64,000 nt of DNA from contig JAAHFU020000002.1 in NCBI GenBank assembly GCA_010672825.2, forward strand, positions 694,001-758,000. The letters are read 5' to 3'. This document shows, in pieces, positions 45,910 through 50,229 of this stretch (positions are counted from its first letter, which is position 1; every line of letters starts with the position of its first letter). Below the pieces are notes generated by a model. The model worked only from the letters and a program-made list of their open reading frames with translations, had not been told where the DNA came from and did no database searches. A program made the translations under genes and the position numbers. The DNA is from Leptolyngbya sp. SIO1E4 (GTDB lineage Bacteria > Cyanobacteriota > Cyanobacteriia > Phormidesmidales > Phormidesmidaceae).

Positions 45910-46368
45910 TTAGACGTTACTTTTATCACTACGGGGTGACAGAAGCCGCCATATGCGATGGACAAGCGTTGCAGAAACATAAAACAGCACAAATCCGATT
46001 AAGGGATGAAAAATTGCTAACGGAAACGGCAATGGAATTTGGAAATGAATCGTCAGAAACTGCAACCCCAACAAACAGGGCAAACTCACTGCCAGAATTC
46101 TTATTGGCTTAGGAAAGGAAACCCAATAAGCCCAGGCCAATAGGATAAGGGATAATCCGCTGTATCCCCTCACTAGCCAGACATGCATTGTCCACCAAAA
46201 TGGGTTATAAAAGTGAGCAAGCCCAACTGTAATTAACTGAGCAGTTAAGCAAAGGTTGAACAATACTGAAGCGATATAAAAGCCAACTGTTTTCGGCCTC
46301 AGGGGTAACTGATTTTTATCTGACTTTGGATTGGGTATGGCATCTACTTGATTTAACGAAGAGGACAT
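45910..46368 (-). CDS. Four-helix membrane protein of unknown function
   Basis: 152 residues. After ~30 polar residues four hydrophobic segments follow (approximately 30-52, 62-82, 90-108 and 118-138). The sequence FLTIHFQIPLPFPLAIFHPLIGFVLF and the histidines in GLAHFYN and ATLVHRIW recall small DUF6220-like membrane proteins, but this is tentative. Divergent from the GAF-LuxR regulator 132 bases away, so they may share regulation. Confidence 0.55.
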   Translation of the reverse strand: MSSSLNQVDAIPNPKSDKNQLPLRPKTVGFYIASVLFNLCLTAQLITVGLAHFYNPFWWTMHVWLVRGYSGLSLILLAWAYWVSFPKPIRILAVSLPCLLGLQFLTIHFQIPLPFPLAIFHPLIGFVLFYVSATLVHRIWRLLSPRSDKSNV

Positions 46369-46500
46369 GATTAGCCAAGAAGTGAGCGGGTCAGGTTAGC
46401 GAGGTGTTTTTAATAATGCTGAAGCTAGATTAAAGCTGATCACAGCCCTTGGCATAGACCTCGATCGGGTATATTTGCGTTATCAGGAGGAGATAAGTCA

Positions 46501-47235
46501 ATGAAAAACCCCACAAAAACTCCCCTACAGAAATTATTTCAAGCCATTGCCCAAGCACAGGATGAATCTGAACTCAAGCAATCGGTTTTGGCCAAGTCAG
46601 GCGAATATTTTGCGGCGACGCGCTGGGGAGTGTGGTTTTTAGACCAGCTTCCTGTCATCAATGAAAATACGCCAGATATCATTCAGCGAGCGATATCGCT
46701 AGATCACAACCCTGTCTTGCGCTACCTGGTACAGCGTCACGCGGCTATCCACGATGAAGTGATTTTGCCACCGGGGGTTTGGCAGACAATTTGCCCCCGG
46801 GCTGATCATGGGCATGTCATGGCAGGGCCGATTATTCGGCAGGGCCAACTTGTAGGCGGTATCGCCTTTACCCGTCATCGAGATTCCCCAGCCTTTAATG
46901 CCGATGATTTAGCAGATTTAAATGCACTGTGCCTACATTTTTCGGCACGGCTGGCGGCACTCCGTTCAACCGGAGAGGCTTCGAGGGTAGATGACGCTGC
47001 CCCCAAGCTATTGGCAAATCATCGGCTCACACCACGTGAAACACAGGTTGCTGAACTGGTTGCTCAAGGGCTTACCAACAAAGAGATTGGCGCTGCTTTG
47101 TGGATTACAGAAAATTCTGTAAAGCAGGCATTGAAACGGATGTTTCGCAAGCTTCAAGTCTCATCACGCACTGAGATGGTGGCCCAACTGTCGATGAATG
47201 CAGTGAACGTTCATACCAAAAGGACAGCCGTTTGA
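46501..47235 (+). CDS. GAF-like sensor domain fused to a LuxR-type DNA-binding domain
   Basis: 244 residues, preceded by an AGGAGGAGA ribosome binding site. Residues ~15-160 form a GAF-like fold (QSVLAKSGEYFAATRWGVWFLD, IIRQGQLVGGIAFTR). The C-terminal ~65 residues are a LuxR/NarL helix-turn-helix: LTPRETQVAELVAQGLTNKEIGAALWITENSVKQALKRMFRKL. No receiver domain, so activation is presumably through ligand or redox sensing by the GAF part. It lies 191 bases upstream of the CMD/ECF41 operon and may regulate it, or the divergent membrane protein. Confidence 0.85.
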   Translation: MKNPTKTPLQKLFQAIAQAQDESELKQSVLAKSGEYFAATRWGVWFLDQLPVINENTPDIIQRAISLDHNPVLRYLVQRHAAIHDEVILPPGVWQTICPRADHGHVMAGPIIRQGQLVGGIAFTRHRDSPAFNADDLADLNALCLHFSARLAALRSTGEASRVDDAAPKLLANHRLTPRETQVAELVAQGLTNKEIGAALWITENSVKQALKRMFRKLQVSSRTEMVAQLSMNAVNVHTKRTAV

Positions 47236-47364
47236 GCTGGAGTGAATGTCTTGAGTGAATGACAAATAAGCCGGTTCCACCGCGGCTATTGCAATCTACT
47301 TACTTTTTCTGAATAACAGAAATTGCCAGTTCCAAACAACGCCCAGTCAGGGTGACGTTACCCC

Positions 47365-47391
47365 TGTCACATCTGAATCCGCTATCTCGTC
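47365..47391 (+). promoter_or_regulatory. Candidate ECF41-type promoter
   Basis: TGTCACA at 47365-47371 and CGTC at 47388-47391 are separated by 16 bases, 35 bases before the start codon of the CMD gene. This matches the promoter described for ECF41 sigma factors upstream of their carboxymuconolactone-decarboxylase-like target genes. Since an ECF41 gene is in the same operon, autoregulation is likely. Confidence 0.65.
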
Positions 47392-47426
47392 TTCTTTAAT
47401 GAAGACCTTAGACAGGAAAGCGATTC

Positions 47427-47888
47427 ATGACCGTAAGACTTGATCTCGACAAGATCAATCCGACTGCTTATCAAGCCATGATGGGGTTAGAGCGTTATGT
47501 CCGTAAGAGTGGGCTTGACAAATCCCTCATTGAACTCATTAAAGTCCGCGCCTCCCAAATCAATGGCTGTGCGTTCTGCATCGACATGCACACCAAAGAT
47601 GCCAGGAACGCAGGCGAGACAGAACAGCGACTATATGCCCTAAATGCGTGGGAAGAGACTCCCTTTTTCACCCCCCCCGAACGTGCTGCCTTGGCGCTGA
47701 CGGAGGTCGTCACGCATATTGGGGAGCAGGGCGTATCTGATGAGATGTATGAGCACGTTAGTCGTTACTTTACACCTGTGCAAATCACGCAGCTGCTGAT
47801 GGCAATTGTCACAATCAATGCTTGGAATCGAATTGCCATTACAACTCGGCTGGTTCCTGGCAGCTATCAAGTTGAAGCAGCTGCTTAA
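47427..47888 (+). CDS. Carboxymuconolactone decarboxylase/AhpD-family protein
   Basis: 153 residues. NGCAFCIDMHTKDARNAGETEQRL contains the CxxC pair and downstream histidine of the AhpD-like peroxidase-disulfide reductase active site (SxxxCxxCxxxH; here INGCAFCIDMH). Such proteins reduce peroxides or act as redox relays. First gene of a three-gene operon: 12 bases to the membrane protein, then the ECF41 sigma gene. CMD-type oxidoreductases are the standard partners of ECF41 sigma factors. Confidence 0.9.
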   Translation: MTVRLDLDKINPTAYQAMMGLERYVRKSGLDKSLIELIKVRASQINGCAFCIDMHTKDARNAGETEQRLYALNAWEETPFFTPPERAALALTEVVTHIGEQGVSDEMYEHVSRYFTPVQITQLLMAIVTINAWNRIAITTRLVPGSYQVEAAA

Positions 47889-47900
47889 CAGGAGGGTTCA

Positions 47901-48314
47901 ATGATGACAAAGTTTGCCCAATATGGGGCATCTGTGGTGATCATCCATGCAAGTATGGTTGCTTTACATGGCCTTTCCCATGGAGTGCTACCCGTGTCCC
48001 TTTCTTTATTTCAAGGCCTATTTGTTGGAATTGTGATTGTCCTGGCTCCTCTGTTTGCGGCCATTCTGCTGTGGACTCGGTTCTCTCGTATGGGCGCTGC
48101 AATTTTGCTGGGCTCAATGATGGGAGCATTGGCGTTTGGTTTGTACAATCATTTCATCTTCATCGGCCCCGATCATGTGTCCCAGGTTCCGAGTACGGGA
48201 TGGGGGATCTTGTTTCAGACAACAGCTGTCCTTCTTGCAGTTACCGAAGGGCTAGGAGTGGGAGTTGGCATATGGGGACTCAGGAATACATCGCAACAAG
48301 CAATCATTCAGTAA
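47901..48314 (+). CDS. Small four-helix membrane protein in the ECF41 operon
   Basis: 137 residues with an AGGAGG site seven bases upstream of the start. Four hydrophobic segments cover most of the protein (SVVIIHASMVALHGLSHGV, GLFVGIVIVLAPLFAAILLW, AAILLGSMMGALAFGLY, and TTAVLLAVTEGLGVGVGIWGL). Histidines occur in HASMVALHGLSHG and YNHFIFIGPDH. No family recognised. Overlaps the sigma gene by 43 bases, so translation is probably coupled. Confidence 0.7.
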   Translation: MMTKFAQYGASVVIIHASMVALHGLSHGVLPVSLSLFQGLFVGIVIVLAPLFAAILLWTRFSRMGAAILLGSMMGALAFGLYNHFIFIGPDHVSQVPSTGWGILFQTTAVLLAVTEGLGVGVGIWGLRNTSQQAIIQ

Positions 48315-49243
48315 CCTGGCTTGAGGACTTTGATCACTATCGATCGCGCTTGTTTGCGATCGCCTATCGCATGCTCGGCAGCGTTATGGATGCTGAAGAC
48401 ATGGTGCAGGAGACCTTTCTCCGGTGGCAGCAAGTGTCTGAGCCATCTGTTAAATCCACCCAAGCCTATCTCACCACAATCATCACGCGCCTGTGCATTG
48501 ATCGTCTCCGCTCCGCTCAGGTTCGACGCGAACAGTATGTTGGCTCTTGGCTTCCCGAACCAATTGTCACGGAGTTGTCTGCCGATCCCACCACCCTGGT
48601 TGAATTGGCAGACTCCCTAAGCATGGCGTTCCTGGTCTTACTAGAACGATTATCACCGTTGGAACGGGCTATCTTTTTGCTGCGGGAAGCCTTTGGCTAT
48701 GATTACAGCGAAATTGGCCGAATTGTTGAGAAAAATACGGCCAATTGTCGTCAAATTGCTCGACGAGCGCGCCAGCACCTGGCGGATCAGCGACCACGTT
48801 TTCAGGCCTCGCTTCAGCAGCGAGAACAGCTCACCCGCAAATTTATGCAGGCCTGCCGTCAGGGTGATCTGCAAGAATTGCTCGACTTACTCGCTGAAGA
48901 TATCACCCTCTGGTCTGACGGGGGCGGTCAAGTTGTGGCATGCCTGAAGCCGCTACACGGGGCAGCCAAGATAGCGGGCTTCCTGCGAGCCATTTACCGC
49001 CATCAACACAAACTGGGTTTGGACTATGAACTTGAGCTAGCTCAGGTTAATGGCCAACCTGGCATCATATACACCCTCGGCGGCAACATTCAAAGTGTTG
49101 TGGCAATCGATATTGCCGATAACCGGATTCGGTCTCTCTATTTTGTTAGAAACCCGAATAAGCTAAAACGCAGCTTTTCAAAAGCTGTCGCTGAAATGGT
49201 CATTGCGGATATATCGAGCCATCCATCAGCAGACGCTCATTAG
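48272..49243 (+). CDS. ECF41-type RNA polymerase sigma factor with SnoaL-like C-terminal domain
   Basis: 323 residues from the ATG at 48272, which has GGAG-rich sequence upstream; a longer open frame upstream overlaps the membrane gene and lacks sigma features. Sigma region 2: FAIAYRMLGSVMDAEDMVQETFLRW. Region 4: ERAIFLLREAFGYDYSEIGRIVEKNTANCRQIARRARQHL. The linker WLPEP, the C-terminal motif DGGG and the NPNKL motif near the end are exactly the landmarks of the ECF41 group, where the fused SnoaL-like domain replaces an anti-sigma factor and controls activity. Third gene of an operon with a CMD protein. Confidence 0.92.
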   Translation: MGTQEYIATSNHSVTWLEDFDHYRSRLFAIAYRMLGSVMDAEDMVQETFLRWQQVSEPSVKSTQAYLTTIITRLCIDRLRSAQVRREQYVGSWLPEPIVTELSADPTTLVELADSLSMAFLVLLERLSPLERAIFLLREAFGYDYSEIGRIVEKNTANCRQIARRARQHLADQRPRFQASLQQREQLTRKFMQACRQGDLQELLDLLAEDITLWSDGGGQVVACLKPLHGAAKIAGFLRAIYRHQHKLGLDYELELAQVNGQPGIIYTLGGNIQSVVAIDIADNRIRSLYFVRNPNKLKRSFSKAVAEMVIADISSHPSADAH

Positions 49244-49527
49244 CAGATTCTTATAGAGTAGAAACACTCTGAAAGTCGAAAATAGTACCTGCAAAGACCT
49301 AACGGATTGTCCAGCAAAGCTGATAAAAATCAACGTCACAAAAGGCTTTTAAATACTAGGATGTAGTCAATCAATTTAACCATAATCTATCTTGTCTGAT
49401 TACTCGCTGAAAGCTAGAAAAAGCCTGAAAAAGTATACTCAATTGAGGTCTATGCGGACTCGATTCATCAAACCTAAGCTAGTAAATAGTTCATTGATCA
49501 GCCCTAAACCCCCTAGAGGATTGAGCC
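49244..49527. other. Intergenic region upstream of ndhK
   Basis: 284 bases, AT-rich, with no gene, repeat or hairpin that I can support. It should contain the ndhK promoter. Confidence 0.35.
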
Positions 49528-50229
49528 ATGAATTCCACCAACCAAGATCAGATCGCCAACCCCCTTGAACCGCCAAAAGTAACTCAAGAACTCTCTGAGA
49601 ACGTCATCCTGACAACCCTTGATGATCTTTACGACTGGTCAAGGTTATCCAGTATTTTTCCTTTGATGTTTGGGACAGCCTGCTGCTTTATGGAATTTAT
49701 GGGTGCTTATGCTCCTCGCTTCGATTTAGAGCGCTTTGGCATGGCTCCCCGAACCACCCCTCGACAGGCAGATTTGCTCATCACCGCAGGAACCATCACC
49801 ATGAAATATGCCCCTGCTTTGGTGCGACTTTATAAGCAAATGCCAGACCCCAAATATGTGATGGCCATGGGTGCCTGCACCATTACAGGTGGGATGTTCA
49901 GCGTTGATTCACCCACAGCGGTGCGAGGGGTCGATAAGTTGATTCCTGTAGATGTCTACATTCCCGGCTGCCCGCCACGACCGGAAGCCGTTATTGATGC
50001 CATCATCAAGTTACGGAAGAAAATGGCCAATGAAAGTCTGCAAGAGAAAAATCGCAGCTCACAAACGCATCGCTACTATTCAGTTCCCCACAAGATGAAG
50101 GTGATCAAGCCCCTCCTAACTGGGAAATACCTGCAGAGCAAAACGCGGCAGATACCCCCTTCAGCATTAACTGAAGTCGTTGCGAGCCCTCAATCATCTC
50201 AAGCTCATGAAGATATCCAAACGGGATAG
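49528..50229 (+). CDS. ndhK: NAD(P)H-quinone oxidoreductase subunit K, stand-alone and divergent copy
   Basis: 233 residues. The 4Fe-4S (N2) ligands are present: [10 protein letters not shown] (two adjacent cysteines), [13 protein letters not shown] and [31 protein letters not shown] and [16 protein letters not shown] confirm NdhK. The segment [20 protein letters not shown] differs from the usual [20 protein letters not shown]. ndhC and ndhJ, its partners in the normal ndhC-K-J operon, are not adjacent. It may be a second ndhK, as known for some cyanobacteria (inference). The C-terminal ~50 residues are variable. Confidence 0.9.

What the first reader, a model, noticed from the sequence alone, without database searches (positions are those of the whole stretch)
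47365..49243. ECF41 sigma operon with an apparent self-recognised promoter
The sigma factor at 48272-49243 shows the WLPEP, DGGG and NPNKL landmarks of the ECF41 group, whose fused SnoaL-like domain replaces an anti-sigma factor. The first gene of the operon is the classical CMD/AhpD-type partner, and a TGTCACA-16-CGTC element stands 35 bases upstream. The inserted four-helix membrane protein between them is an unusual third member and may be the missing signal input. A GAF-LuxR regulator immediately upstream adds a second possible control.
Basis: partly seen in the sequence, partly recalled or inferred. Interest (0 to 1): 0.6.

Follow-up and report, generated by a model that had tools for sequence, protein, structure and literature searches.

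The report
Self-activated sigma operon with membrane partner
This is a cyanobacterial version of a known bacterial switch, a sigma factor with a built-in control domain that appears to turn on its own operon; the less ordinary part is an unnamed four-helix membrane protein with five conserved histidines that follows the operon's enzyme more than the switch.

Summary
48272-49243 encodes an ECF41 (SigJ-type) sigma factor and 47427-47888 its usual CMD/AhpD-type partner. TGTCACA-N16-CGTC (47365-47391) ends 35 nt before the partner's ATG. At 38 of 43 ECF41 loci of the phylum this motif stands on the coding strand within 2.2 kb upstream of the sigma gene; the same 500 kb hold 3 other sites on either strand and 0 reversed-control sites. 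Genome-wide counts alone are at chance level. Autoregulation of one operon is well supported and is the published ECF41 scheme.

The four-helix membrane protein belongs to a family with no accepted Pfam or NCBIfam match and five conserved histidines. It sits between enzyme and sigma genes in 10 of 37 sigma-found loci. The closest sigma relatives lack it there, and 23 of 24 ECF41 genomes searched that lack it at the locus lack it everywhere. Another 27 copies have no sigma gene on the stretch held; 20 of these have an epimerase-type enzyme gene within 3.5 kb. This favours a co-regulated effector over the missing signal input. The GAF-LuxR neighbour has a full-length relative at one of 42 other loci.

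The parts
47365..47371 (+). -35 element TGTCACA of the predicted ECF41 promoter
   Evidence: Sequence; TGTCAC[AG] in all 39 sites found with that pattern, at 38 of 43 ECF41 loci; identical to the -35 mapped in two species in PMC3426412
47388..47391 (+). -10 element CGTC, 16-nt spacer
   Evidence: conserved T at motif positions 19, 23 and 28 around it
47392..47426 (+). 35 nt between -10 and start codon, holding the predicted start site and an AGGA ribosome site (47414-47417)
   Evidence: Sequence; start site not mapped
47427..47888 (+). CMD/AhpD-type enzyme (153 aa, CxxC), the usual ECF41 target
   Evidence: PF02627 84.1 bits; ahpD_dom 72.2 bits
47901..48314 (+). Four-helix membrane protein (137 aa), five conserved His (16, 23, 27, 84, 92); unnamed cyanobacterial family, here called MEM
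   Evidence: AlphaFold2 pLDDT 90.3; His in 42, 42, 42, 42 and 41 of 42 copies; no family over its cut-off
48260..48264 (+). Embedded ribosome site GGGAG for the sigma gene, inside the membrane-protein gene
   Evidence: Sequence; GGAG at the like place in 7 of the 9 relatives with a 37-43 nt overlap
48272..49243 (+). ECF41 (SigJ-type) sigma factor with C-terminal SnoaL-like domain; start overlaps the membrane gene by 43 nt
   Evidence: TIGR02957 386.8 bits; solved relative SigJ 5xe7, E 5.4e-61
46501..47235 (+). GAF-like/LuxR regulator, neighbour only; not part of the conserved unit
   Evidence: GerE 57.1 bits, GAF below cut-off; full-length relative at 1 of 42 other ECF41 loci

Best explanation
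An autoregulated ECF41 operon. Inferred mechanism: (1) a small molecule or redox signal acts on the SnoaL-like domain of the sigma factor and relieves its inhibition; no separate anti-sigma protein is needed. (2) RNA polymerase with this sigma recognises TGTCACA-N16-CGTC at 47365 and transcribes CMD, membrane protein and sigma as one message, so the response amplifies itself. (3) The sigma gene is translated from a ribosome site inside the membrane gene, which couples the two levels. (4) CMD acts as an AhpD-like CxxC thiol enzyme on peroxides or electrophiles. (5) The membrane protein is a second effector: its conserved histidines, most of which should lie toward the outer face, probably bind a metal, haem or quinone and link the enzyme's chemistry to the membrane. 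Shown here: gene identities, promoter conservation, gene order and its variation, histidine conservation. Inferred from the ECF41 literature: steps 1 and 2. Inferred from sequence and family knowledge only: steps 3 to 5.
For: Promoter at 38 of 43 ECF41 loci against 3 other sites and 0 control sites in 500,507 bp. In PMC3426412 the same signature was mapped and shown active in two species, COE genes were the only detected targets, and the fused C-terminal domain affected activity without an anti-sigma factor (abstract, passages, sections 20, 21, 27). Membrane gene dispensable for the sigma: absent at the locus in the closest relatives and genome-wide in 23 of 24 genomes. Membrane gene without sigma: 27 loci, 20 with an epimerase-type gene within 3.5 kb; 4 of 7 phylum-sample genomes with a strong copy have no ECF41. 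Conserved histidines, four-helix model, loop charges. Redox genes on the 27 sigma-free stretches: GMC oxidoreductase in 16, catalase-related protein in 9, nitroreductase in 9 (family names by Pfam on one member each).
Against: No transcription start, signal or ligand is known here. Whole-genome motif counts are at control level: N16 sites 28 against 27 in 13 genomes; the extended motif 16 against 7 in 13 genomes, and 1 against 1 in the window's genome. Sigma-free membrane genes form mostly one clade (26 of its 28 rows) and one (L050) keeps the motif, so a regulatory role lost later is not excluded. Step 5 rests on conservation alone; no fold match is significant. L127, apparently intact, lacks the motif and has the order sigma-membrane gene.
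Confidence: 0.72

Rival explanations
1. The membrane protein is the signal input: it senses an outside metal, oxidant or quinone state with its histidines and restrains or activates the sigma factor, replacing or adding to control by the SnoaL-like domain.
For: A 37-43 nt gene overlap is kept in 9 of 12 other membrane-sigma pairs examined; conserved His placed toward the outside by loop charges; sigma-linked copies occupy most branches of the membrane-protein tree outside one large, mainly sigma-free clade.
Against: Closest sigma relatives lack it at the locus, and 23 of 24 genomes lack it altogether; presence beside the sigma changes at least 5 times on well-supported branches of the sigma tree; 27 copies have no sigma gene on the stretch held; the model shows short loops and no cytoplasmic domain to hold a sigma.
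Confidence: 0.13
2. The GAF-LuxR regulator controls the operon together with the sigma factor.
For: It lies 129 nt upstream of the motif on the same strand; no terminator-like site on the + strand between it and CMD; L125 carries a 48% identical relative about 0.9 kb downstream of its ECF41 gene.
Against: No full-length relative on the stretches held for the other 41 ECF41 loci. The short inverted repeat GTGAC-N9-GTCAC over the -35 (47352-47370) is not kept in L107, L112, L114 or L133.
Confidence: 0.06
3. The membrane gene is a passenger that inserted between CMD and sigma without a role in the pathway.
For: Patchy presence beside the sigma (10 of 37 sigma-found loci); sister operons with CMD directly followed by sigma.
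Against: Recurs with both CMD-type and epimerase-type enzymes in the same slot, often with the same overlap; five His held in 41 or 42 of 42 copies; persists beside the epimerase-type gene without the sigma.
Confidence: 0.09

Closest known systems
ECF41 loci of Bacillus licheniformis (ydfG, ecf41Bli) and Rhodobacter sphaeroides (RSP_0606, RSP_0607), PMC3426412
   Same: CMD gene with an ECF41 gene; TGTCACA -35 before the CMD gene (-10 TGTT or CGTC); WLPEP linker; fused C-terminal domain; no anti-sigma gene
   Different: Here a membrane-protein gene lies between CMD and sigma and overlaps the sigma start; the promoter here is predicted, not mapped
SigJ of Mycobacterium tuberculosis (PDB 5xe7; organism of that entry recalled)
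   Same: Only solved chain found at E up to 1e-30 with the sigma alignment (E 5.4e-61); match runs over nearly the whole profile
   Different: Neighbouring genes not compared here; the query alignment held 6 sequences
DoxX-like (PF13564) and DUF6463 (PF20064) small membrane proteins at other cyanobacterial ECF41 loci (L031, L104, L108, L110)
   Same: Small multi-helix membrane proteins in or near the same slot of an ECF41 operon (the DoxX-like ones of L104 and L108 by similarity to L031 only)
   Different: No sequence relation to the window's membrane protein was detected

Membership tests
ECF41 sigma factors | Score over the curated cut-off of the matching NCBIfam models (TIGR02957, SigJ NF007214) | tested here: met
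   386.8 vs 323.25 and 352.2 vs 271 bits. That these models correspond to ECF41 is recalled
ECF41 sigma factors | WLPEP motif in the linker between regions 2 and 4 | tested here: met
   WLPEP present, invariant in 6 of 6; named in PMC3426412 section 21
ECF41 sigma factors | C-terminal extension of about 100 aa, SnoaL-like, with conserved motifs | tested here: met
   About 150 aa after region 4; SnoaL_2 25 bits, just under its cut-off of 27; DGGG and NP-x-KL in 6 of 6. That these two are among the group's three motifs is recalled; the text read does not spell them
[quoted passage not shown] no anti-sigma gene next to it | tested here: met
   CMD with CxxC upstream; no anti-sigma family among the hits of the neighbours scanned; the membrane protein's role is untested
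ECF41 sigma factors | TGTCACA-N16-CGTC promoter before the COE gene | tested here: met
   47365-47391; 38 of 43 loci
ECF41 sigma factors | Promoter activity depends on the sigma factor and is modulated by the C-terminal domain | not testable with these tools
   Needs a reporter or transcript experiment
AhpD-like CxxC enzymes (CMD family) | CMD family match with CxxC | tested here: met
   PF02627 84.1 bits, ahpD_dom 72.2 bits, CAFC in sequence; activity not testable here
DoxX family (for the membrane protein) | Match to DoxX or DoxX_2 profiles | tested here: not met
   No DoxX hit for any of 34 members at E up to 1, although HMMER filters drop most weak hits, so a remote relation is not excluded
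Membrane anti-sigma factors | Cytoplasmic sigma-binding domain next to a membrane helix | tested here: not met
   In the predicted model four helices span 2-136 of 137 residues, leaving no soluble domain; no such Pfam hit

The most novel reading that the evidence does not exclude
The membrane protein founds a new family of small integral-membrane metal-, haem- or quinone-binding proteins (His at 16, 23, 27 on one face of helix 1, with 84 and 92) that form a membrane-bound redox unit with whichever enzyme, CMD or epimerase/NmrA-type, shares its operon. ECF41 in cyanobacteria would then be a switch for a membrane-linked detoxification module, which would suggest what these ECF41 systems respond to.
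Probability: 0.3. Interest if true: 0.55.

Novelty: new variant of a known kind. Interest (0 to 1): 0.4.

Why it matters
The papers seen leave the signal of ECF41 sigma factors open (PMC3426412 section 21; PMC8999054 passages). A conserved, unnamed membrane protein that repeatedly shares the operon with the target enzyme, and persists with the epimerase-type one where the sigma is gone, gives a concrete place to look for the chemistry. The comparison also shows that this protein and the sigma factor are separable, and it sharpens the promoter definition for cyanobacterial ECF41 operons.

Tried and rejected
Membrane protein as signal input: weighed against the closest relatives, genome-wide absence and sigma-free copies, and lowered. 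GAF-LuxR as co-regulator: no conservation.

Wider regulon: the only other exact N16 site among the five N15-17 sites of the genome (G000:C2:1870058-1870084, L004) stands 55 nt before an ORF that looks caspase-like (recalled, not tested). It lacks T at positions 19 and 23 of the extended motif. In 13 other genomes there are 28 exact sites against 27 reversed-control sites: 13 lie at ECF41 operons (two of them in G460; none in G498) and 15 do not. Of these 15, 13 overlap an ORF (two of them within 30 nt of its start), one (L158) has a gene start 111 nt downstream and one (L134) has none. No second target is claimed.

Fold of the membrane protein: no Foldseek match under E 0.001 (best 0.17). VIA-align top Z is 12.1 to a GluA2-TARP gamma-2 chain, below the level of about 13 that the tool gives as possibly only a common arrangement for helical bundles. 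Profile searches of solved structures gave only hits of E 1.6 or worse. Weak Pfam hits (DUF5985, CopD, DUF6008 and others; the best E is 0.00049, for a DUF6008 match) are not used. A sigma remnant at L062: a 33-aa blastp match was not found again by tblastn at E 1e-5, so it is dropped.

Consensus scan of 46300-49560: one sigma-70-like site (4.3 expected in shuffles) and four terminator-like sites (3.1 expected); nothing used except the lack of a + strand terminator-like site before CMD.

Labels corrected: the reference I called 'DUF4331?' is a catalase-related protein (PF00199, 37.9 bits). My notes say 8 genomes with a strong membrane-protein copy (one search shows 7), 12 of 28 sites at ECF41 operons (13), and an overlap of 36-45 nt (37-43 nt).

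Rows dropped: L074 (no ORF match), and repeat records of loci already held (L041, L049, L054, L056, L059, L067, L070), before the count of 43 sigma loci and 27 sigma-free loci. Some of the 27 share a genome, and Phormidium tenue FACHB-886 has both kinds; L061 and L063 begin at a contig end, so an upstream enzyme gene may be cut off. L162 (plasmid) is not counted. Of the 43, six (L040, L046, L058, L066, L069, L073) came from the membrane-protein search and are biased for it, so its frequency is given on the 37 sigma-found loci. Five of these 37 (G498, G402, G515, G425, G531) are below the TIGR02957 cut-off, four of them only as partial matches. L073 has a broken membrane gene and only a sigma fragment. 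Misses of the motif: L109 (contig ends 411 nt upstream), L129 and L131 (truncated sigma), L132 (TGTCAT variant, broken genes), L127 (intact, true exception). The membrane tree carries a long-branch warning. The genome-contig search was seeded with cyanobacterial sequences, so absence of the family elsewhere is weakly tested.

Full report
What is there. Four genes lie on the + strand: a LuxR-type regulator with a sub-threshold GAF match (46501-47235), a CMD/AhpD-type enzyme (47427-47888), a 137-aa membrane protein (47901-48314) and an ECF41 sigma factor (48272-49243). The sigma factor passes the curated cut-offs of both matching NCBIfam models and carries WLPEP, DGGG and NPNKL. The one solved chain found at E up to 1e-30 is SigJ, 5xe7. 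The window's genome has one match over the TIGR02957 cut-off.

Promoter. TGTCACA-N16-CGTC at 47365-47391 ends 35 nt before the CMD start codon. Genome-wide the short pattern is no rarer than chance: 5 sites with N15-17 against 4 for the reversed control. I gathered 37 ECF41 loci from 36 genomes by sigma searches of 386, 388 and 63 genomes that partly overlap, and 6 more from the membrane-protein search. In these 43 loci (500,507 bp) the pattern TGTCAC[AG]-N16-[CT]GTC occurs 39 times on the sigma's strand within 2.2 kb upstream, at 38 loci, and 3 times anywhere else on either strand; the reversed control occurs 0 times. A start codon follows within about 50 nt at nearly all of these sites, as the printed flanks show, and the genes that follow are of unrelated kinds: CMD, an epimerase/NmrA-type enzyme, a flavodoxin-like enzyme, an amine oxidase. 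Of the five misses, four are cut, truncated or broken loci; L127 is the one true exception.

Sharper motif. On 29 sites under 65% alike over 112 nt, T at motif position 19 (25 of 29), T at 23 (27 of 29), T at 28 (27 of 29) and a following T-A-T trend are conserved beyond TGTCACA and CGTC. The pattern TGTCAC-N12-T-N3-T[CT]GTCT occurs once in the window's genome, at this promoter (reversed control: 1). In the 13 genomes searched it occurs 16 times against 7 control sites, and 9 of the 16 are at ECF41 operons. So the sites outside the operons are no more than chance would give. That fits a single target operon, as reported for B. licheniformis and R. sphaeroides (PMC3426412; abstract, passages and sections 20, 21 and 27 seen), but genome counts do not prove it.

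Membrane protein. The family (here MEM) has no Pfam or NCBIfam match over a cut-off (NCBIfam on the window's copy only) and no credible relative among solved structures by sequence. An AlphaFold2 model has mean pLDDT 90.3 and pTM 0.84, with helices at 2-29, 36-58, 62-86 and 101-136; no fold match stands out. Across 42 copies His16, His23, His27 and His84 are in all 42 and His92 in 41; the exception, L071, is a broken copy. Loop charges over 34 members (more K and R at the N-terminus, at 57-64 and at the C-terminus; acidic and His-rich at 84-101) suggest both ends inside and H27, H84 and H92, with H23 one turn below H27, near the outer face. His16, 23 and 27 lie on one side of an ideal helix.

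Who it travels with. Among the 37 sigma-found loci, 10 have COE-MEM-sigma and one (L127) has sigma-MEM. The window's closest sigma relatives (L107, L112, L114; grouped with the window at 95/87 support) and L133 have CMD directly followed by sigma. The label 'MEM beside sigma' needs 9 changes on the 40-row sigma tree, 5 of them forced by well-supported branches. Of the 36 genomes, 25 have no MEM at the locus; 24 of these were searched whole (G425, with a sigma fragment, was left out) and 23 have no MEM anywhere, while G489 has one elsewhere. Conversely, 27 MEM loci have no sigma match anywhere on the stretch held; 20 of them have the epimerase-type enzyme within 3.5 kb, and 1 has the motif. In the 386-genome phylum sample 7 genomes have a strong MEM copy, and 4 of these are not among the 6 with ECF41 (taking both as the same draw; three further genomes have only weak hits to longer frames). 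The 27 sigma-free stretches also hold a GMC oxidoreductase (16), a catalase-related protein (9), a nitroreductase (9), a short-chain dehydrogenase (8) and a universal stress protein (8) (names from Pfam on one member each). MEM therefore follows the enzyme more than the sigma, which argues for an effector.

Limits of that argument. On the 42-row MEM tree, 26 of the 28 rows of one clade are sigma-free, and sigma-linked copies occupy most other branches; the tree carries a long-branch warning. One sigma-free locus (L050) keeps the motif. The sigma-free state may be derived, so a former or conditional regulatory role is possible. In 9 of 12 other COE-MEM-sigma pairs examined the likely sigma start lies 37-43 nt inside the MEM gene, 7 of these with GGAG just before it, as in the window; this should couple their translation.

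GAF-LuxR. Of three matches at E 1e-5 in all loci, only the window and L125 (48% identity) span the protein; L050 matches over 65 aa. No terminator-like site lies on the + strand between it and CMD, so read-through is possible, but it is best taken as a neighbour.

Literature. The search for ECF41 with cyanobacteria lists 5 papers and with DoxX none. A 2024 survey of cyanobacterial sigma factors has no occurrence of SnoaL or carboxymuconolactone in its main text (PMC11119718, passages only). PMC3426412 counts 2 cyanobacterial ECF41 proteins and mentions hypothetical genes between COE and ECF41 in general. A review says that the ECF41 extension inhibits by contacting the linker and that such extensions likely bind small molecules (PMC8999054, passages). 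The 'SigJ' of Anabaena (PMC4390870, passages) is called a group 3 sigma factor there, so the name is not a guide. I found no description of this membrane family; that rests on the listings in an open-access library only.

Verdict. A well-supported ECF41 operon of known type, with a recurrent and unnamed third gene. New variant of a known kind; the membrane family is the part worth an experiment.

Noticed in passing
L004 (G000:C2:1870058-1870084, - strand): Second exact TGTCACA-N16-CGTC site of the genome, 55 nt before an ORF that looks caspase-like (recalled, not tested). It lacks two of the extra conserved T positions, so it is probably chance.
   Followed up: partly
L162 (Chroococcidiopsis sp. 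CCNUC1 plasmid pB): An IS701-family transposase gene sits between the membrane gene and sigJ in an otherwise standard CMD-membrane-sigJ cluster on a plasmid.
   Followed up: no
L031, L104, L108, L110: Other ECF41 loci carry DoxX-like or DUF6463 small membrane proteins in or next to the operon: small membrane proteins seem a recurring theme at these loci.
   Followed up: partly
window 47388-47402 and homologous sites: Conserved bases continue past the -10 (CGTCTTAT, A at motif position 38), although the genes downstream are of unrelated kinds.
   Followed up: partly
L109, about 1314 in the sigma's orientation: A full motif copy stands just downstream of the sigma gene and before the next gene on a 3.6-kb contig.
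   Followed up: no
window 45910-46368, - strand: DUF6220 membrane protein (PF19728, 54.3 bits) just upstream of the GAF-LuxR gene on the opposite strand.
   Followed up: no
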